A DNA stretch of 64,000 nt from Clostridia bacterium (GTDB lineage: Bacteria; Bacillota; Clostridia; Oscillospirales; Acutalibacteraceae), in the NCBI GenBank assembly GCA_017399175.1, contig JAFQEE010000043.1, positions 97,265 through 161,264 on the forward strand, given 5' to 3'. The position numbers were made by a program, and so were the translations under genes. The notes below the pieces were generated by a model. It was not told the DNA's origin and did no database searches. It was given only the letters and a program-made list of their open reading frames with translations. Shown piece after piece: positions 25,280-33,880 of this stretch. Every line of letters starts with the position of its first letter. Within the stretch, counting starts at the first letter, position 1.

Positions 25280-25368
25280 GGAGAGATACCGAAGTGGTTA
25301 TAACGGAACGGTCTTGAAAACCGTCGTACGGCAACGTACCGTGGGTTCGAATCCCACTCTCTCCGCCA
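25280..25368 (+). tRNA. tRNA-Ser (UGA)
   Basis: 89-nt class II tRNA. Acceptor stem GGAGAGA/TCTCTCC, discriminator G, CCA encoded (25366-25368). Anticodon loop CTTGAAA gives TGA at 25315-25317. A long variable arm (CGTACGGCAACGTACCG region) is present. Confidence 0.95.
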
Positions 25369-25432
25369 GATGCGGGTTGTAAGTATTTACAGCCCGCTTT
25401 TTAATTAAATAATGGTTAAATCCGTTACACTT

Positions 25433-25523
25433 GCAGAAGTACTCAAGTTGGTGACGAGGCGCCCCTGCTAAGGGCGTAGGCCGGGAAACCGGTGCGAGAG
25501 TTCGAGTCTCTCCTTCTGCGCCA
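25433..25523 (+). tRNA. tRNA-Ser (GCU)
   Basis: 91-nt class II tRNA. Acceptor stem GCAGAAG/CTTCTGC, discriminator G, CCA encoded (25521-25523). Anticodon loop CTGCTAA gives GCT at 25467-25469. The last 22 nt are duplicated at 25674-25695. Confidence 0.95.
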
Positions 25524-25563
25524 AATAATCTCATACACCTTTTGGTGTGTGAGATTATTTTTT
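25524..25563 (+). terminator. Terminator of tRNA-Ser (GCU)
   Basis: AATAATCTCATACACC/GGTGTGTGAGATTATT (one G-T pair), loop TTTT, followed by TTTTTTG. Confidence 0.9.
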
Positions 25564-25569
25564 TGTATT

Positions 25570-25787
25570 GAGAGACTCGAACTCTTTCGTCCATGTGCGA
25601 CGGTATGCCGTCAGGCAGAGGAGCACGGACATAAAATAGGATTTTTGCGAAGCAAAGACAAGGCAGCGCCTTGTCGAGTCTCTCCTTCTGCGCCAATAAA
25701 ACCCATACATCATCCGATGTGTGGGTTTTATTTGTTTTATGCAAGATATTAAGTGAAAGACTCGAACTCAGTTCGTCTATGTGCGAC
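25570..25787. repeat. tRNA-Ser-derived repeat unit (duplicated 3' end and inverted T-arms)
   Basis: After the tRNA terminator comes an inverted copy of the T-arm, GAGAGACTCGAACTC (25570-25584), followed by TTCGTCCATGTGCGAC (25586-25601). Then the last 22 nt of tRNA-Ser including CCA are repeated exactly (25674-25695, 172 bp after the original) and are followed by their own hairpin. A second inverted T-arm GAAAGACTCGAACTC (25755-25769) and TTCGTCTATGTGCGAC (25772-25787) close the unit. So the order tRNA end, hairpin, inverted T-arm, TTCGTC(C/T)ATGTGCGAC occurs twice. Confidence 0.8.
25695..25733 (+). terminator. Second terminator-like hairpin after the duplicated tRNA end
   Basis: AATAAAACCCATACATC/GATGTGTGGGTTTTATT with a short loop and a TTGTTTT tail. 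It parallels the first tRNA terminator in position. Confidence 0.75.
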
Positions 25788-26261: not shown

Positions 26262-26948
26262 ATGGCAAAGAGGCACACAAATATAACCAAATTAAAAATC
26301 ATACAAACAGCACTTCGCCTGTTTCTTGAAAACGGATTTTCAAATACATCGGCAAGAGCCTTGTGTAATGACCTTGATATTTCATTAGGTAATCTTACCT
26401 TTTATTTTCCGTCAAAGGAACATCTTTTAGCCGTTCTTATTGAAATGCTATGTGATTTTCAATGGAAGATGATGAAGGAAGAGGCTGACGACGGTATAAG
26501 TCTTGTCCTTGCAGTTTGTCTTGAGCTTATGTCAATGACATCAGCAGCAGAAGAAAACGAAACAGCCAAGGACTTGTTCATTTCAGCTTACACAAGCCCC
26601 ATAACCCTTGAAATCATTCGAAAAAATGATTCACAAAGAGCAAAAACTGTATTTTCGGAATATTGTCCTGATTGGACGGACGAACAGTTTGTTGAAGCAG
26701 AAGCACTTGTTTCGGGAATCGAATATGCAACTCTTATGACAACGAAAACCTCATCACCGCTTGATGTAAGGATTTCAGGTGCACTTGATACAATACTGTA
26801 TATTTACAAAGTTCCCGAAGAAATAAGAAAAATCAAAATTCAAAAGGTACTTTCAATGGATTACAAAAAAATCGGCAGTCGAATTTTTGACGAATTCAAA
26901 GAATATATTGAACAAGTAAACGAACAGGCATTCAATGAACTGTTTTAA
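26262..26948 (+). CDS. TetR/AcrR-family transcriptional regulator
   Basis: 228 aa. The N-terminal helix-turn-helix (KIIQTALRLFLENGFSNTSARALCNDLDISLGNLTFYF, shown in pieces by the TetR pattern TALRLF...NGF..TS..A...DIS.G.LTFYFPSKE) is clear; the C-terminal ligand domain is not assignable. GGAGGTG lies six bases before the ATG. Two tandem palindromes over its promoter suggest autorepression. Only 18 bases separate it from the giant secreted phosphoesterase, so the regulator probably controls that gene too. Confidence 0.88.
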   Translation: MAKRHTNITKLKIIQTALRLFLENGFSNTSARALCNDLDISLGNLTFYFPSKEHLLAVLIEMLCDFQWKMMKEEADDGISLVLAVCLELMSMTSAAEENETAKDLFISAYTSPITLEIIRKNDSQRAKTVFSEYCPDWTDEQFVEAEALVSGIEYATLMTTKTSSPLDVRISGALDTILYIYKVPEEIRKIKIQKVLSMDYKKIGSRIFDEFKEYIEQVNEQAFNELF

Positions 26949-26966: not shown

Positions 26967-29783
26967 GTGAAAAACACAATCAAGAAAACATTATCAATAG
27001 TTATTGCAATCCTTATGATTGTATCAACAGTACCAATGGCGTTTGCGGCAGAGTCGGATGTGGTAATACTCTATACAAATGATGTGCATTGTACTGTTGA
27101 TAATTATGCAGTTTTAGCCGCATACAAAGCTGAACTCATAGCAAACGGACATACAGTTATTACTGTTGACGCTGGCGATGCTATTCAAAATGATGATTTT
27201 TGCTCAATGACTGCAGGTGAAACAGTTGTCGATATTATGAATGCAGTAGGTTATGATTATGCCGTACCCGGAAATCACGAATTTGATTATGGTGTAGATA
27301 TATTCCTTGACCTTGCAGGAACAAAAGCAAACTATAATTACATAAGTTCAAACTTTTATTATCTTACTAGTGTGCAACCTGTTTTTGAACCATATTACAT
27401 TGAAGATGTTGGTGATTATCAGATTGCTTTTGTGGGTATTTCAACTCCTGAAACAGCAAATGCAAGTCCAGAATATTTTAAAAATGAAAGTGGAAACTTC
27501 ATTTACGGTTTCCCAGTATATCCTGATGGGATGACAAACGAAATTCTTTATGAAACCATTCAGGAAAGTGTTGACGATGCAATCAATGACGGTGCTGATA
27601 TTGTTGTTGCAGTAGGTCATACAGGAATTACAGAAACAACAGATGGATGGAAAACATCAGACATTATCGCAAACACAAGCGGTATCGACTATTTCATTGA
27701 TGGTCATTCACATGAAACAGTTGAAGAAGAACTCTACCAAAACATAAATGAAGAAGATGTTGTTCGTACATCAACAGGTTCAGATTTTGCAAACTTTGGT
27801 GTTATGACAATACATGGTGATGGTAGTGTTGATTTTGAACTTATCGACCCTGACACAGTCAATGTTGATGAAATGTCAGCAGATGCAAAGACCGCATATA
27901 ACACAGTTAAAGAAAAAGTTGACGATTTTAATGATAATATTGATGATTTCGGTCACGATTTTGTTGACGGTATTTGCGGTACTTGTGGTGAAGTTTGTAC
28001 TCACATTGATACTGATTATGACGAAATATGTGACGATTGTGGTGCTGAAACACCAATAAAATCTGTTGAACTTAATATTTGGGATACAGTTTATATCCCT
28101 GAAGAACATGCAAAAGTTATGGTTAAATTCATTCCTGAGGAATCAGGCGATTATGTTGTTGTTTCCGATAATGGCGGTAATGACGATGAAATTGACCCTT
28201 ATGTTGTAATTTGTGACAGTAATGGTGACGAGATAGAAGAAGACGATGACCATGATGGTTCATATAATTTCTATTGTGACTTTAAAGCAACAGCAGGCGA
28301 AACATATTACATAGAGCTTTATGCTTACGAATCAGATGTTGAATATGACTATATTATAAAAAGATATGTAGAAATTTCACATCAGCCAACTATAGACGAA
28401 CCTTATGTTGAACTTAACTGGGATTTTGATGCAGATTACCAGTGGTATTCAGTTGAAGAAAATTCAGCAGAAATCACAGACGAAAATGCTGAAGGTCGTT
28501 ATGCTGATGATATAGGTCCTGCAACTTATGATGAGGAATACGGTTGGTCAAGTGCTCCATATGATGAATATGAAGCTAATTATTTCCAGATTGAATTGGA
28601 AGCAGGTCAAACAGTTGAGATGATACCTGATATGGATGTTGGATGTTTAGGTATCTGGTCATATGATGGCAATAGCGAAGATTTTATTGATGTTCTTTCA
28701 GGTGAATCTGTTTTTTTCACAGCTAATATTGATGATACATACTTTGTATATACAATGGATAACAGTGATGTTCATATAAGAGCATATTTAACATTTTATG
28801 AATACACACCAATAAATGGTGAAACAGATGCAACTCTCAAGAATCCTGTTGTAGGTACAAAATATGCTTGTAAAGTTACACTCGAAGACGGTAGTGCTTT
28901 AACATCAGACATTCTCGAAAATGCTTATGCTATCACTCATCAGCCGACAGCAGATGAACCTTATGTAGAACTCAATGACGATAAAGATGCAACATATCAA
29001 TGGTATATTGTAGACGGAGCAAAAACTGAAATTACAGATGAAAATGCTGAAATTTGTACATCAATCAATGATTCTGAATATGATGCTGAAAACGGATGGA
29101 CGGGAGCTTATACAGGAAGAGTAGAAGGATTGTATGATTGCTACAACTATTTCTCACTTCCTCTTAAAGCAGGTGACATACTCACAATTGAATTTACAGA
29201 AGAATTTTACGGAACTGTTGATTTCCATAGTGGTATATCAGGTTATGAAAATTATGAGATAGAAGGTGAAGATACTTGCGAAATTATTGTAGAATATGAT
29301 GGTGTATATACAATTAGTGCATATAAGCTTCCTGAAAATAATATTGTAAACATTAAAGCAAGTCTTGAAAGTTATGAATACACACCTGTTGACGGTGCAA
29401 CAGAAGCTCTCTATGTCGCAACAGAAGATGGTCTTTATGCTTGCGAAGTAACTTTTGCTAACGGCACAACAGAAATGTCAGATATTTACGAAGGTCCTCA
29501 CGCTCACAGCTATAACACAGTTGTAACTGCCCCAACTTGTACAGAAGATGGCTACACAACATACACTTGCGGTTGCGGTGACACTTATGTTGACGACGAA
29601 ACTGATGCAACAGGTCACGCAGATAACGACAATGACGGATATTGTGAAAACTGTGATGAATTAATCTGTGACCATAATTGTCATAAAGGCGGTATTGCAG
29701 GTTTCTTCTGGAAAATCACTCGATTCTTCAATAAACTTTTCGGTACAAACAAGTACTGCGAATGCGGTGCAGCACATTATTAA
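26967..29783 (+). CDS. Secreted metallophosphoesterase with CxxC modules and conserved C-terminal tail (938 aa)
   Basis: GTG start seven bases after AGGAGG. A signal peptide ends at AFA (about residue 27). Residues about 30-300 are a 5'-nucleotidase/CpdB-type calcineurin-like phosphoesterase: LYTNDVHC, DAGDAIQ, GNHEFDYG, VAVGHTG and DGHSHE supply the two-metal site. The usual C-terminal nucleotide-binding domain is absent. Instead there is a CxxC segment (about 330-360), an acidic beta domain, two tandem ~185-aa repeats (about 469-655 and 656-840, each starting with (S/T)HQPT.DEPYVEL and ending YEYTP.(N/D)G), a Cys repeat, and the tail CHKGGIAGFFWKI...CECGAAHY. Extracellular phosphate or nucleotide scavenging is plausible. 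Confidence 0.8.
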   Translation: MKNTIKKTLSIVIAILMIVSTVPMAFAAESDVVILYTNDVHCTVDNYAVLAAYKAELIANGHTVITVDAGDAIQNDDFCSMTAGETVVDIMNAVGYDYAVPGNHEFDYGVDIFLDLAGTKANYNYISSNFYYLTSVQPVFEPYYIEDVGDYQIAFVGISTPETANASPEYFKNESGNFIYGFPVYPDGMTNEILYETIQESVDDAINDGADIVVAVGHTGITETTDGWKTSDIIANTSGIDYFIDGHSHETVEEELYQNINEEDVVRTSTGSDFANFGVMTIHGDGSVDFELIDPDTVNVDEMSADAKTAYNTVKEKVDDFNDNIDDFGHDFVDGICGTCGEVCTHIDTDYDEICDDCGAETPIKSVELNIWDTVYIPEEHAKVMVKFIPEESGDYVVVSDNGGNDDEIDPYVVICDSNGDEIEEDDDHDGSYNFYCDFKATAGETYYIELYAYESDVEYDYIIKRYVEISHQPTIDEPYVELNWDFDADYQWYSVEENSAEITDENAEGRYADDIGPATYDEEYGWSSAPYDEYEANYFQIELEAGQTVEMIPDMDVGCLGIWSYDGNSEDFIDVLSGESVFFTANIDDTYFVYTMDNSDVHIRAYLTFYEYTPINGETDATLKNPVVGTKYACKVTLEDGSALTSDILENAYAITHQPTADEPYVELNDDKDATYQWYIVDGAKTEITDENAEICTSINDSEYDAENGWTGAYTGRVEGLYDCYNYFSLPLKAGDILTIEFTEEFYGTVDFHSGISGYENYEIEGEDTCEIIVEYDGVYTISAYKLPENNIVNIKASLESYEYTPVDGATEALYVATEDGLYACEVTFANGTTEMSDIYEGPHAHSYNTVVTAPTCTEDGYTTYTCGCGDTYVDDETDATGHADNDNDGYCENCDELICDHNCHKGGIAGFFWKITRFFNKLFGTNKYCECGAAHY

Positions 29784-29789
29784 AATACC

Positions 29790-29817
29790 GTAGGGGCAGG
29801 TCTCCGTGCCTGCCCGT
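29790..29817. repeat. GTAGGG palindrome between the two giant secreted protein genes
   Basis: GTAGGGGCAGG...CCTGCCCGT with arms GGGCAGG/CCTGCCC. It is the only notable feature in the 74-bp gap. Confidence 0.8.
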
Positions 29818-29857
29818 GATTCTATAAGCAAATTTTATCCTATAAGGAGGAAAATAT

Positions 29858-32800
29858 ATGAAAAAAACAAACAAGATTTTAAGCATACTGCTCGTAATAG
29901 CAATGATGCTCACAATGGCACCGATTTCGGTGTTTGCGGCATCGGTAGAAGCAAGCGGTAAATTCGGCGCAAGCGGCAACAATCTTACTTGGTCGCTTGA
30001 CAGTGACGGTGTTCTTACCGTAAGCGGCAGCGGTGCAATGGAAGATTTTGCCAACGCTTCAAAAGTGCCGTGGTACAGCAAAAGAACCAAGGTTAAATCG
30101 GTTGTTATAGAATCCGGTGTTACAAACATCGGCAAAGATGCTTTTACCGGTATTTATTCTCTGGTTAGTGCAACGATTTCAGACACAGTAACAAGCATAG
30201 GCAACAGAGCATTCTCTAACTCCGCTCTTACAAACTTTGAGTTTTCCGATGCCGGCAATCTTAAAACAATCGGAAACTCAGCGTTCAACAGTACAAACAT
30301 TAAAAGTATGATTATTCCCGACGGCGTTACAACGCTTGGTTCATATGTTTTCGGCTACGGTCCTATCAAGAGTGTTACAATTCCTGCAAGTGTAACATCT
30401 GTTGGAAACTATTTCTTCGAGGAAGCTACTGATTTGAATGAAGTTATTTTTCTCGGTAATAAAGAGCCTGAAACTATAGGCAATATGGTATTCCTGGGTT
30501 GTTCATCGTTAGCTTATGTATCTGTTCCTGCAGATTATGAAGGAGATACTTTCAGTAATATGAAGGTAGCAAAGGCTGTAGCCTCTGTAGCTGAGGTGAA
30601 TGGTCAGGGCTTCGCAACTCTGGCGGATGCAGTTTCCGCTGCACAGAGCATCAACGGTGCCGAGCTCAAGCTTCTGTCTCATATTTCCATTGACTCGGGA
30701 ATTACAATTGAAAGCGGCAATTTTACCATTGACCTTAACGGTAAAGAGCTGTTCTCAAACGGTTATTTTCTTTTACGAATTGACGGTGCGGATGTAACTG
30801 TCGTTGATAGTGCAGGCGGAGGTATTTTTAACGCAAGCAACGATCAGGGCGACATAGTGCTTGAGGTGTTAAGCGGAAGTGCGAACATTTCAGGCGGTAC
30901 GTTTAATTCCGCCGGCTATCCCGCAACCGTTAGAGACGGCACACTAAAGTTGACGGGTAAAGACTTTGTTTTGAACGGCAACTGGTGTATCGGTTGGTAT
31001 GGCGGCAGCATAGACCTTTCAGCTTGCACAGCAGATGAGGTTCGTATTCAGGCTTGTGCTGATGAAGGATTACAGGCAAGTGCACTCACATTGCCCGATG
31101 GATGGGGTTTGTTCAAAACCAACGGCACACCCTGCACCGATTTTGTAAAATATGATATTTACGTAGCCAAGGCCGGCTGTAAAGTAACAGCTTCCGTCAA
31201 CCCTGCCGAAGGCGGAACAATAGTGGGAGCAGGCACTTATGGCTCAGGTGCAACCGTTAATCTCACCGCATCGGCAGCCAACGGTTACAGATTTGTTAAT
31301 TGGATAGAAAACGGTGAGGAAGTAAGCACAAGTGCAGTCTATACTTTCACAGCTTCTAAAAATCGTGAGCTTACTGCAAACTTTGAAATTGTTCCTCACA
31401 CCCACTCATTCACATACTTCGCAAGCGGTGATACAATTACTGCTGTTTGCGAAAATACAGACGGCAACTGCCCTGACCCTGAGGGAACGCTCACAATCTT
31501 CGCACCTACAGACACTTGTACAGACGGTAATGCTGTTGTTGATAATCAGCTTGTAGATAAATCGGTTACAGTTAATGTTGTATATTCAACTGACGATGGT
31601 TCTGTTCCTACAGAAGATGGCACTTACACAGCAAGTGTTACTCTTGGAGATGCAACTGCAACTGTTGAATTTACACTCGGTCATGATATGATTATTGATG
31701 AAGCAGTTGCTCCAACTTGTACAGAAACAGGTCTTACAGAGGGTGCACATTGTTCTCGCTGTGACGAAGCAACAACTGAACAGGAAATCGTTCCTGCACT
31801 TGGTCACGATTGGTCAAACAAAGACGGTATTTGTGCAAACGGATGCGGTGAAAATTGTGAACACGAAAACTATATCGACGGTGTATGTGACTATTGTGGA
31901 TACGAATGCACTCACGATTGGAATGAAGGCGTACTCACAAGACCTGAAAGAATTACTACAACTGAATGGTATGACGGATATTATACCTATACCTGTACTC
32001 TTTGCGGTGACGAAAAGACTGAAACAGCAAAGAGAGCTGATTATACAGAATTTGAGGAAACATACAGCAAAGTTTTAGGTTATCTTAACGGTTCTGACCT
32101 TACAAACGAAGCAAAGGCTGAAATTCATGATGCTGTTCAGGATTATTTGTCAGCAAACCCTGAATTTAATGACAACGGTAATGTTCGAGGTACCTTAATC
32201 GAAAGCGAACAGGCTATCGTTGATGATGCAACTACATTTGCTAAACAGATTCTTGCAATTATTGAAGGAAATCTTACAAATTGTGAATCAGGTAATCACG
32301 ATGTAAGAAGTTACACATCTAACAACAATGCAACTTGTACAGAAGATGGTACAAAGAGAGGTAACTGCTATGTTTGCGGTGAAGAAGTTGTTGAAACAGA
32401 CGAAAACAACCTTGCTTTTGACCACGATTATGACTACGAAAATGGCGTTCTTACAAGACCAACTGAAACAGAAAAAGGTTATTACACATATACTTGTAAG
32501 AATGATACAAATCACACAACAACTAAAGAAGTTGACAGTGCTGATTACACAGAATATGACAAGGCAGCACAAAAAATTGCAGGATATTTCTCAACTCCAA
32601 ATCTCACAGACGCATCAAAACAACTTATTATTGCAGAGCTTAATAAATTCGCACAGAACAATAGTGAGTATTGTGACAAGAATGGTAACCTTCGCAGAGA
32701 TTTAATTGCAAGTGAACAAGATATTGTTGACAATGCGACAAGAGCAGCAAACGAACTTATTCAGGTTGTTGATGGTCTTCTCGCAAACTGTGAAGCAGGA

Positions 32801-33880
32801 AACCACGATGTAAGAAAATACACATCTGACAACAATGTAACTTGTACAGAAAACGGTACAAAGAGAGGTAATTGTGTTGTTTGTGGTGAAGAAGTTACAG
32901 TTGACGACGAAAATGCTCCTGCACCCGGTCACGATATGATTACTGACGAGGCAGTTGAACCAACTTGTACAGAAACAGGGCTTACAGAAGGTTCACATTG
33001 TTCTCGCTGTGACGAAGCAACAACTGAACAGGAATTTGTTCCGGCACTCGGTCACGATATGATTACTGACGAAGCAGTTGAACCAACTTGTACAGAAACA
33101 GGTCTTACAGAGGGTGAACATTGTTCTCGCTGTGACGAAGCAACAACTGAACAGGAAATCGTTCCTGCACTTGGTCATACACCACTTGACGCAGTTGAAG
33201 AAAATTATGTTGCTCCTGATTGCACAAATGATGGTAGCAAAGATTTGGTAGTTTATTGTGATGTTTGTGATGAAGAACTTGAAAGAGAACCAGTAACTAT
33301 CCCTGCACTCGGTCACGATATGATTACTGATGAAGCAGTTGAACCAACTTGTACAGAAACAGGTCTTACAAAGGGTGCACATTGTTCTCGCTGTGACGAA
33401 GCAACAACAGAACAAGAAGTAATCGACGCACTCGGTCACGATTATGAAACAGTTGTAACAGCTCCAACTTGCACAGAAGACGGTTACACAACATATACTT
33501 GTACAGTTTGTGGTGACACATACACAGATGATGAAACTGATGCACTCGGTCACACACCACTTGATACAGTTGAAGAAAACTATATAGCTCCAACTTGTAC
33601 AGAAAACGGCAGTGTTGATTATGTAGTTTACTGTGATGTATGTGATGCTGAAATCAGTCGTGAAACTGAAACAATCGAAGCAACAGGCCACGCAGACAAC
33701 GACAATGATGGTTATTGTGATGATTGTGAAGAAAATCTTTGCAACCACGCTTGTCATAAGGGCGGAATTCGCGGATTCTTCTGGAGGATAATCAAATTCT
33801 TCTACAGACTTCTCAACATTCAGCAGTATTGCGATTGTGGTAATCTCCACTACGAAAAACCTATTTTTGGAAAAGGCTAA
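29858..33880 (+). CDS. Giant secreted repeat protein: LRR, InlB-like and CxxC repeats, conserved tail (1340 aa)
   Basis: ATG after AAGGAGG; signal peptide cut near VFAA (about residue 28). Residues about 60-225 are BspA-type leucine-rich repeats (IGNRAFSNS, IGNSAFNS, LGSYVFGYG). A short beta-helix-like stretch (ISIDSGITIESGNFTIDLNG) and an InlB B-repeat-like region (about 430-520; SGATVNLTASAANGYRF) follow. The rest is repeats: two ~120-aa helical modules beginning ADYTE(F/Y) (about 726 and 893), four 41-aa CxxC repeats of GHDMITDEAVEPTCTETG type, and variants. It ends with CHKGGIRGFFWRI...CDCGNLHYEKPIFGKG, the same tail as the preceding gene. Likely a cell-surface adhesin or scaffold. No LPxTG or SLH motif is present. 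Confidence 0.85.
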   Translation: MKKTNKILSILLVIAMMLTMAPISVFAASVEASGKFGASGNNLTWSLDSDGVLTVSGSGAMEDFANASKVPWYSKRTKVKSVVIESGVTNIGKDAFTGIYSLVSATISDTVTSIGNRAFSNSALTNFEFSDAGNLKTIGNSAFNSTNIKSMIIPDGVTTLGSYVFGYGPIKSVTIPASVTSVGNYFFEEATDLNEVIFLGNKEPETIGNMVFLGCSSLAYVSVPADYEGDTFSNMKVAKAVASVAEVNGQGFATLADAVSAAQSINGAELKLLSHISIDSGITIESGNFTIDLNGKELFSNGYFLLRIDGADVTVVDSAGGGIFNASNDQGDIVLEVLSGSANISGGTFNSAGYPATVRDGTLKLTGKDFVLNGNWCIGWYGGSIDLSACTADEVRIQACADEGLQASALTLPDGWGLFKTNGTPCTDFVKYDIYVAKAGCKVTASVNPAEGGTIVGAGTYGSGATVNLTASAANGYRFVNWIENGEEVSTSAVYTFTASKNRELTANFEIVPHTHSFTYFASGDTITAVCENTDGNCPDPEGTLTIFAPTDTCTDGNAVVDNQLVDKSVTVNVVYSTDDGSVPTEDGTYTASVTLGDATATVEFTLGHDMIIDEAVAPTCTETGLTEGAHCSRCDEATTEQEIVPALGHDWSNKDGICANGCGENCEHENYIDGVCDYCGYECTHDWNEGVLTRPERITTTEWYDGYYTYTCTLCGDEKTETAKRADYTEFEETYSKVLGYLNGSDLTNEAKAEIHDAVQDYLSANPEFNDNGNVRGTLIESEQAIVDDATTFAKQILAIIEGNLTNCESGNHDVRSYTSNNNATCTEDGTKRGNCYVCGEEVVETDENNLAFDHDYDYENGVLTRPTETEKGYYTYTCKNDTNHTTTKEVDSADYTEYDKAAQKIAGYFSTPNLTDASKQLIIAELNKFAQNNSEYCDKNGNLRRDLIASEQDIVDNATRAANELIQVVDGLLANCEAGNHDVRKYTSDNNVTCTENGTKRGNCVVCGEEVTVDDENAPAPGHDMITDEAVEPTCTETGLTEGSHCSRCDEATTEQEFVPALGHDMITDEAVEPTCTETGLTEGEHCSRCDEATTEQEIVPALGHTPLDAVEENYVAPDCTNDGSKDLVVYCDVCDEELEREPVTIPALGHDMITDEAVEPTCTETGLTKGAHCSRCDEATTEQEVIDALGHDYETVVTAPTCTEDGYTTYTCTVCGDTYTDDETDALGHTPLDTVEENYIAPTCTENGSVDYVVYCDVCDAEISRETETIEATGHADNDNDGYCDDCEENLCNHACHKGGIRGFFWRIIKFFYRLLNIQQYCDCGNLHYEKPIFGKG
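31679..33433 (+). repeat. 123-bp coding repeats (four copies)
   Basis: Near-identical units of exactly 123 bp (41 codons) lie at 31679-31801, 32927-33049, 33050-33172 (tandem with the previous) and 33311-33433. Each encodes GHD...PTCTETGL...HCSRCDEATTEQE. High DNA identity suggests recent duplication and a likely site of length variation. Confidence 0.85.

What the first reader, a model, noticed from the sequence alone, without database searches (positions are those of the whole stretch)
29650..33880. Two adjacent giant secreted proteins share a distinctive C-terminal tail
The 938-aa and 1340-aa proteins end with the same arrangement: ADNDNDGYC..C, then C..(N/A)CHKGGI.GFFW(K/R)I, an amphipathic aromatic/basic helix, and C(E/D)CG..HY. 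The rest of each protein is different (phosphoesterase versus LRR/InlB-like), and neither has LPxTG, SLH or a hydrophobic anchor. A Cys/His/aromatic terminus conserved on unrelated bodies is what a sorting or attachment signal looks like. I have an impression of similar tails in other Ruminococcaceae proteins but cannot verify it here.
Basis: partly seen in the sequence, partly recalled or inferred. Interest (0 to 1): 0.72.

Follow-up and report, generated by a model that had tools for sequence, protein, structure and literature searches.

The report
Helical surface-attachment tail of gut bacteria
Some gut Clostridia end many unrelated exported proteins with the same small tail, a greasy helix between two cysteine/histidine clusters, which probably holds those proteins on the cell surface in place of the usual anchors.

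Summary
The tail is real. The two window proteins share a C-terminal module (63% identity over 59 aa) that no Pfam, NCBIfam or PDB entry convincingly matches. It recurs in the same genome (6 copies) and in scattered relatives (up to 14 strong copies). All 57 strong full tails I read lie 0-8 residues from the stop; 35 of 40 readable starts look like signal peptides; bodies are unrelated (LRR, metallophosphatase, subtilase, papain, CotH, lectin). The core is C-x-[H/C]-x-C-H, an aromatic basic amphipathic helix, then C-x-C-G-x2-H. Position 3 is His in 27 and Cys in 18 of 45, suggesting a metal site. Natural swaps argue for surface attachment: 5'-nucleotidase homologues carry this tail, a sortase-type signal, a lipobox, an SLH-like end or a bare helix; regulator-linked surface genes swap tail for sortase-type signal. 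Weaker relatives keep the helix but vary or lose the Cys/His caps, so the helix is probably the working part. Best mechanism: an in-plane membrane anchor, as in E. coli PBP5, tied by metal. No cognate enzyme was found, but that test was limited. The tail is patchy and, as sampled, confined to one family.

The parts
26262..26948 (+). TetR-family regulator directly upstream of the first tail gene
   Evidence: ORF; clusters with TetR-like ORFs upstream of tail genes in L042, L064, L065, L070; not found by the L042-type regulator as query at E<=1e-10
26967..29783 (+). 938-aa exported phosphoesterase with the C-terminal tail
26967..27050 (+). signal peptide of the 938-aa protein (approximate)
   Evidence: sequence MKNTIKKTLSIVIAILMIVSTVPMAFAA; pattern
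27066..27716 (+). Metallophos (PF00149) domain
   Evidence: residues 34-250, E 4.2e-10
29604..29666 (+). acidic linker with a DxDxDG loop and a CxxC, not part of the invariant core
29667..29780 (+). tail core: CxHxCHK - amphipathic helix - CxCGxxHY, ends at the stop
29858..33880 (+). 1340-aa exported LRR / InlB-repeat protein with the C-terminal tail
29858..29941 (+). signal peptide of the 1340-aa protein (approximate)
   Evidence: sequence MKKTNKILSILLVIAMMLTMAPISVFAA; pattern
30086..30436 (+). best LRR_5 (PF13306) stretch
   Evidence: residues 77-193
31187..31390 (+). Flg_new_2 (PF18998, divergent InlB B-repeat)
   Evidence: residues 444-511
33740..33853 (+). tail core of the 1340-aa protein
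33854..33877 (+). 8-residue extension EKPIFGKG after the tail; similar short extensions (DAPVFG, DTPVFG, EKAIIG) occur in relatives

Best explanation
The tail is a surface-attachment module carried by exported proteins. Steps: (1) Sec export by an N-terminal signal peptide (seen as a sequence pattern). (2) Outside the cell, the C-terminal aromatic and basic helix lies flat in the outer leaflet of the cytoplasmic membrane as an in-plane anchor (inferred from amphipathicity, charge and position, and from natural swaps with sortase-type signals, lipoboxes and bare helices). (3) In this subtype the Cys/His clusters on either side of the helix bind a metal, probably zinc, and tie its two ends together (inferred from six invariant Cys/His positions and a His/Cys exchange at a seventh). 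The variable body is thereby shown on the surface.
For: 57 of 57 strong full tails read are 0-8 aa from the stop. 35 of 40 readable starts are signal-peptide-like. Helix: mean hydrophobic moment 0.59, mean z 2.7 against shuffles of the same letters, mean net charge +2.8, n = 45. Position 3 is His 27, Cys 18 of 45; CH 45 of 45; C-x-C-x3-H 45 of 45. Of 37 5'-nucleotidase homologues, by my reading: 5 Cys tails, 12 TG-type signals (one only partly read), 5 with a hydrophobic stretch and basic end but no TG, 6 lipoboxes, 1 SLH-like, 1 Cys-free C-terminal helix (G175, 76% identical to the tailed G569 query), 5 with none recognised, 2 not read to the end. Regulator-linked surface genes end in a Cys tail (window, L042, L064, L065, L070) or a TG signal (L196, L198, L199, L205). 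Weaker relatives keep a helix without Cys (L241, L244, L253; L218, L220, L225). Precedent: E. coli PBP5 is tethered to the outer face of the inner membrane by an 18-residue C-terminal amphipathic helix (PMC2909392, passages read).
Against: No membrane or metal binding was tested, and no structure could be predicted. Tails are not all independent: 14 of the 46 family places lie in one genome, and tail genes can share DNA at their ends (95% over 279 nt in L042). Five of the 37 nucleotidase homologues have no anchor that I recognise, so an anchor is not obligatory for this body. Two of the Cys-free helices have only moderate moments (G175 and G174, 0.48; seven tails range 0.46-0.78; no shuffle control). 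The hydrophobic moment is a poorly specific predictor (abstract of PMC1564421). Conservation of CxCGxxH is stronger than a generic membrane helix needs, which fits specific recognition as well.
Confidence: 0.52

Rival explanations
1. A CTERM-type sorting signal read by a dedicated, unknown enzyme that cuts or covalently attaches the protein, perhaps through an invariant Cys.
For: C-terminal position, signal peptides, unrelated bodies, many copies in some genomes and none in relatives, the kind of pattern by which PEP-CTERM was recognised (PMC1569441, passages read).
Against: No transmembrane helix after the motif; two of the 11 family genomes have a single strong copy (G133, G138); sortases in 40 of 40 genomes, tailed or not; no recurrent processing gene seen beside tails in loci of limited length; related tails lack the Cys entirely. 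Proteome-wide profiling was not possible.
Confidence: 0.2
2. A non-covalent docking module that binds a partner protein or wall polymer, in the manner of dockerin-cohesin.
For: Strong conservation of single residues (G34 at 90% or more); papain-like homologues elsewhere end in dockerin-like repeats, by eye; the linker contains a DxDxDG loop.
Against: The core has no duplicated calcium loop and no dockerin match in the window proteins; no scaffold gene was seen to recur nearby; Cys-free helices stand in its place in relatives.
Confidence: 0.2
3. The tail is a bioactive or metal-sensing peptide (for example membrane-active when released), not an anchor.
For: Composition resembles membrane-active peptides; stray NCBIfam matches to a phenol-soluble modulin, a peptide pheromone and a sactipeptide family.
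Against: It sits on very large, diverse proteins including enzymes; those matches are near chance (1-3 of 44 members, best E 0.0027). A cleavage site before the tail was not looked for.
Confidence: 0.05

Closest known systems
C-terminal amphipathic membrane anchor of E. coli PBP5 (DacA)
   Same: Exported protein held to the outer face of the cytoplasmic membrane by a short C-terminal amphipathic helix (PMC2909392, passages).
   Different: Here the helix lies between two Cys/His clusters and is shared by many unrelated proteins; PBP5's anchor belongs to one enzyme family (recalled).
LPXTG/sortase surface proteins
   Same: C-terminal module on exported proteins with unrelated bodies; homologous bodies swap between the two.
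   Different: No TG motif, no transmembrane helix with basic end; no link to sortase presence.
PEP-CTERM, GlyGly-CTERM and MYXO-CTERM systems
   Same: Short C-terminal homology region on many proteins of a genome; MYXO-CTERM has an invariant Cys (start of abstract).
   Different: Those have a hydrophobic or transmembrane stretch and a known partner enzyme (starts of abstracts and passages); neither was found here.
Dockerin domains
   Same: C-terminal modules on clostridial surface enzymes (recalled).
   Different: No paired calcium-binding repeats in the core; no Pfam match in the window proteins.

Membership tests
LPXTG/sortase substrate | TG-type motif, hydrophobic helix and basic end at the C-terminus | tested here: not met
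   C-termini of both window proteins and the 45 tails, by eye
S-layer homology (SLH) anchored protein | SLH domains | tested here: not met
   No SLH in the window proteins at E<=1.
Dockerin | paired calcium-binding repeats | tested here: not met
   No dockerin in the window proteins or the 44 core tails; the linker has one DxDxDG loop outside the core
CTERM-type sorting system | C-terminal, unrelated bodies, signal peptide, several copies per genome | tested here: met
CTERM-type sorting system | cognate processing enzyme with matching distribution | tested here: inconclusive
   Sortase in 40 of 40 genomes, no recurrent neighbour enzyme seen; no proteome profiling possible
In-plane amphipathic membrane anchor | amphipathic helix at the end of an exported protein | tested here: met
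   moment, charge; signal peptides; that it is helical was not predicted structurally
In-plane amphipathic membrane anchor | binding to the membrane | not testable with these tools
   needs fractionation or liposome binding
Metal-binding (zinc) module | conserved Cys/His ligands with Cys/His exchange | tested here: met
Metal-binding (zinc) module | bound metal | not testable with these tools
   needs purified protein

The most novel reading that the evidence does not exclude
A previously undescribed class of surface-attachment signals in gut Clostridia: C-terminal aromatic helices, some clamped by a metal site that could make attachment switchable by zinc or redox state, used interchangeably with sortase signals and lipoboxes and possibly served by a dedicated, unidentified enzyme.
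Probability: 0.3. Interest if true: 0.85.

Novelty: new variant of a known kind. Interest (0 to 1): 0.66.

Why it matters
If right, many gut-bacterial proteins that would now be read as freely secreted (LRR adhesin-like proteins, nucleotidases, proteases) are in fact cell-bound, through a module that no Pfam or NCBIfam model recognises. That changes surface-proteome predictions and gives a compact tag for showing proteins on these bacteria. The swaps between homologues make the anchoring question directly testable.

Tried and rejected
Rejected: a single diverged gene family (bodies unrelated). Rejected: sortase presence as the specific partner (40 of 40 genomes). Not established: phage carriage. 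One phage record, PV036458.1, encodes two tailed proteins. It is 100% identical over the 13,844 compared bases to G187:C21 and stops at the stop codon of the last tail gene, after which G187 continues with what look, by eye, like host genes. The stretch between its lysis genes and the tail genes holds a second recombinase and a repressor-like gene, so the true edge of the phage is unclear. In viral contigs the tail pattern matches 2 contigs: the source of that same element, also found by protein, and a chance match antisense to phage genes. Plasmids: no match. Two weak genus hits (G566, G574) were false. A search for the CxxCGxxH-first tail type over 196 class genomes gave 3 weak matches and nothing convincing (those three were not read). 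Literature: six tail strings occur in 4 papers of the open PMC library, each by one short string, unrelated by title and not opened; searches on anchors in Ruminococcaceae and Clostridia gave 0, and a broader one gave 178 papers of which 15 listings were seen. This does not show that nothing is in print, since most subscription papers are not held.

Rows dropped or not read: weak internal stretches (13 bits or less) of the same proteins and one antisense hit of 15 bits were left out by a 30-bit cut. Of the matches weaker than 1e-3 only those with a locus (L027-L037) were looked at; most are unrelated ends. Four distant regulator matches (G023, G072, G100, G122) were not followed. Large draws score only 19 first-look candidates per genome, so counts there are lower bounds. 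Anchor classes were read by eye.

Full report
What was checked. The window encodes two exported proteins side by side, 26967-29783 (938 aa) and 29858-33880 (1340 aa). Pfam places a Metallophos domain in the first and LRR_5 plus a divergent InlB B-repeat in the second. NCBIfam relates the first to the 5'-nucleotidase / cyclic phosphodiesterase group, below every curated cut-off. Their last 59 residues are 63% identical. No Pfam or NCBIfam match of either protein covers the tail; 44 tails scanned alone gave only stray near-chance matches, and no PDB sequence matches their profile at E<=10.

How widespread. One tail as query finds nine places in the window's own genome at E<=1, six at E<4e-10; the other three are a different tail, an Ig-like domain followed by a Cys-free helix. 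A six-tail profile over 200 genomes of the family gives 29 genomes at E<=0.01; 46 places at E<=1e-9 lie in 11 genomes, with 14 in G187, 6 in the window's genome and 5 each in G003, G076 and G190 (my count). In the genus 3 of 39 genomes have tails, after discarding two false hits. In an order draw of 395 genomes 3 have true tails and a fourth, G148, matches by the helix only. In a class draw of 391 only the window's genome has it. So the Cys/His tail is patchy and, as sampled, confined to one family; the large draws score few candidates per genome and give lower bounds. In plasmids there is no match; in phage records and viral contigs the only true case is one element at the edge of a provirus call.

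Anatomy. I fetched the neighbourhoods of 44 of the 46 places plus one named relative (L038) and read 45 tails; all end 0-8 residues from the stop. The other two of the 46 (G133, G138) were read, and ten more, from G551, G565 and G569: 57 of 57 strong full tails are C-terminal. One further match (L101) is a tail-like remnant after an in-frame stop. Two weaker full tails read later (L245, L246) also end 0 and 2 residues from the stop. Invariant over 44 distinct tails are C1, C5, H6, C31, C33 and H37, with F25 and G34 at 90% or more. Position 3 is His in 27 and Cys in 18 of 45. A swap between His and Cys is expected at a metal ligand and not at a disulfide, so I infer a metal site, probably zinc. 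Between the clusters lies an 18-residue stretch with mean hydrophobic moment 0.59, on average 2.7 standard deviations above shuffles of its own letters, and mean net charge +2.8.

Export and bodies. Of 45 proteins, 5 are cut at the N-terminus; of the other 40, 35 have a signal-peptide-like start by a simple pattern. One of the five that do not (L042, 2173-aa frame) has a start with signal peptide lying inverted beside it; the other four (L038, L054, L060, L061) were not explained. A single diverged gene is therefore excluded.

Natural swaps. The phosphoesterase body was followed through the genus and the family. I read the ends of 37 homologues, 8 and 29 (the latter includes the window's own, whose end is in the window). 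Five have the Cys/His tail (G000, G569, G076, G177, G133). Twelve have a TG-type motif followed by a hydrophobic stretch, one of these only partly read. Five have a hydrophobic stretch and basic end without TG. Six have an N-terminal lipobox. One (G190) ends in what looks like SLH repeats (not scanned). One (G175, 76% identical to the tailed G569 query) ends in a Cys-free helix. Five have no anchor that I recognise (two of them show no signal peptide either, and one holds masked letters), and two are not read to the end. The second case is a TetR-type regulator gene upstream of tail genes in the window and in L042, L064, L065 and L070. A search with the L042-type regulator gives 20 matches in 15 of 200 genomes; the window's own regulator is not among them at E<=1e-10. 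I fetched 11 neighbourhoods of relatives. Surface genes with TG-type ends follow directly in L196, L198, L199 and L205 and as second gene in L204; L200 ends in a hydrophobic helix-like stretch, L195 is cut, and L197, L201, L202 and L203 show no such gene next to it. A third body, papain-like, has 29 homologue loci of which 17 are read to the end; three (G056, G187, G174) end in Cys-free amphipathic helices, several in dockerin-like repeats, one in a TG signal, others in nothing I recognise, and none of the 17 in the Cys/His tail of the query.

The helix is the constant. Of the 24 matches with E between 1e-9 and 1e-3, seven had loci read: two (L020, L021) have C-x2-C-G-x2-H before a terminal helix, L023 a looser form of it, L024 the Ig-plus-helix type, L022 and L025 TG-type ends, and L026 nothing clear. 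The other 17 were fetched: 15 run to a stop within 24 residues or inside the match, and two (L251, L257) match only the linker inside a protein. Among the 15 are full Cys/His tails (L245, L246), partial tails (L249, L252), forms with the first cluster only (L242, L243, which are identical, L248, L256), forms with Cys and His before the helix (L247, L250, L254), and ends with no Cys/His cap on the helix (L241, L244, L253, L255). The helix persists while the caps vary, so I take it to be the working part and the metal clusters to be an elaboration. Moments range from 0.46 to 0.78 in seven short tails of other types that I computed, without a shuffle control.

Mechanism. E. coli PBP5 shows that an 18-residue C-terminal amphipathic helix can tether an exported enzyme to the outer face of the cytoplasmic membrane, and that without it the protein is soluble and mislocalised (PMC2909392, passages read). 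The present tails fit that role, with a metal clamp as the new feature. A dedicated enzyme is the main rival: PEP-CTERM was first recognised by the same kind of sporadic C-terminal homology (PMC1569441, passages read). Against it, sortases are present in 40 of 40 genomes, no enzyme was seen to recur beside tail genes, and two family genomes carry a single strong tail. In the genus, the Ig-plus-helix tail is strong in the same three genomes that hold the Cys/His tail (G000, G565, G569) and not in 13 other species searched, two of which show weak partial matches; but nine tailed genomes of other genera lack it and G148 and G018, in which no Cys/His tail was found, have it, so the link may be shared ancestry only.

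Verdict. I put the anchor role at about 0.75 and the membrane-helix mechanism at 0.52. I rate it a new variant of a known kind.

Noticed in passing
G000:C40:48581-48916, C17:7973-8308, C17:3088-3420, C71:5361-5687, C54:45746-46093 (L142, L152, L159, L166, L171): A second C-terminal module in the same genome: an Ig-like domain followed by a Cys-free helix of the kind GFFxKxGxFFRSLFG (three of them read); 5 matches in the window's genome, 11 in G565, 4 in G569.
   Followed up: partly
L042, about 1478-2850 (G187:C21): A regulator gene and the start of a large tail gene are split by an inverted segment of roughly 1.2 kb that carries the signal peptide; possibly phase variation, but only one state was seen.
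   Followed up: partly
PV036458.1:64252-75312 (L172): A record deposited as a complete phage ends exactly at the stop of a tail gene and is identical to G187's contig over the compared stretch; the tail genes may be host DNA included by a provirus call.
   Followed up: partly
L042 and L064, 3' ends of tail genes: Tail gene ends share DNA (95% over 279 nt within G187; 93% over 159 nt between G187 and G177 of another genus) while bodies differ, which suggests recombination or transfer of gene ends.
   Followed up: no
window 25280-25523: Two tRNA-Ser genes (TGA and GCT anticodons) lie about 740 bases upstream of the regulator gene; the antisense ORF 25298-25744 overlaps them and is probably not a gene.
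   Followed up: no
window 26967-29783: The 938-aa protein keeps the metallophosphatase domain but shows no 5'-nucleotidase C-terminal domain in Pfam; a nucleotidase query matches it only over query residues 2-323, against nearly full length in the tailed G076 and G177 proteins.
   Followed up: no
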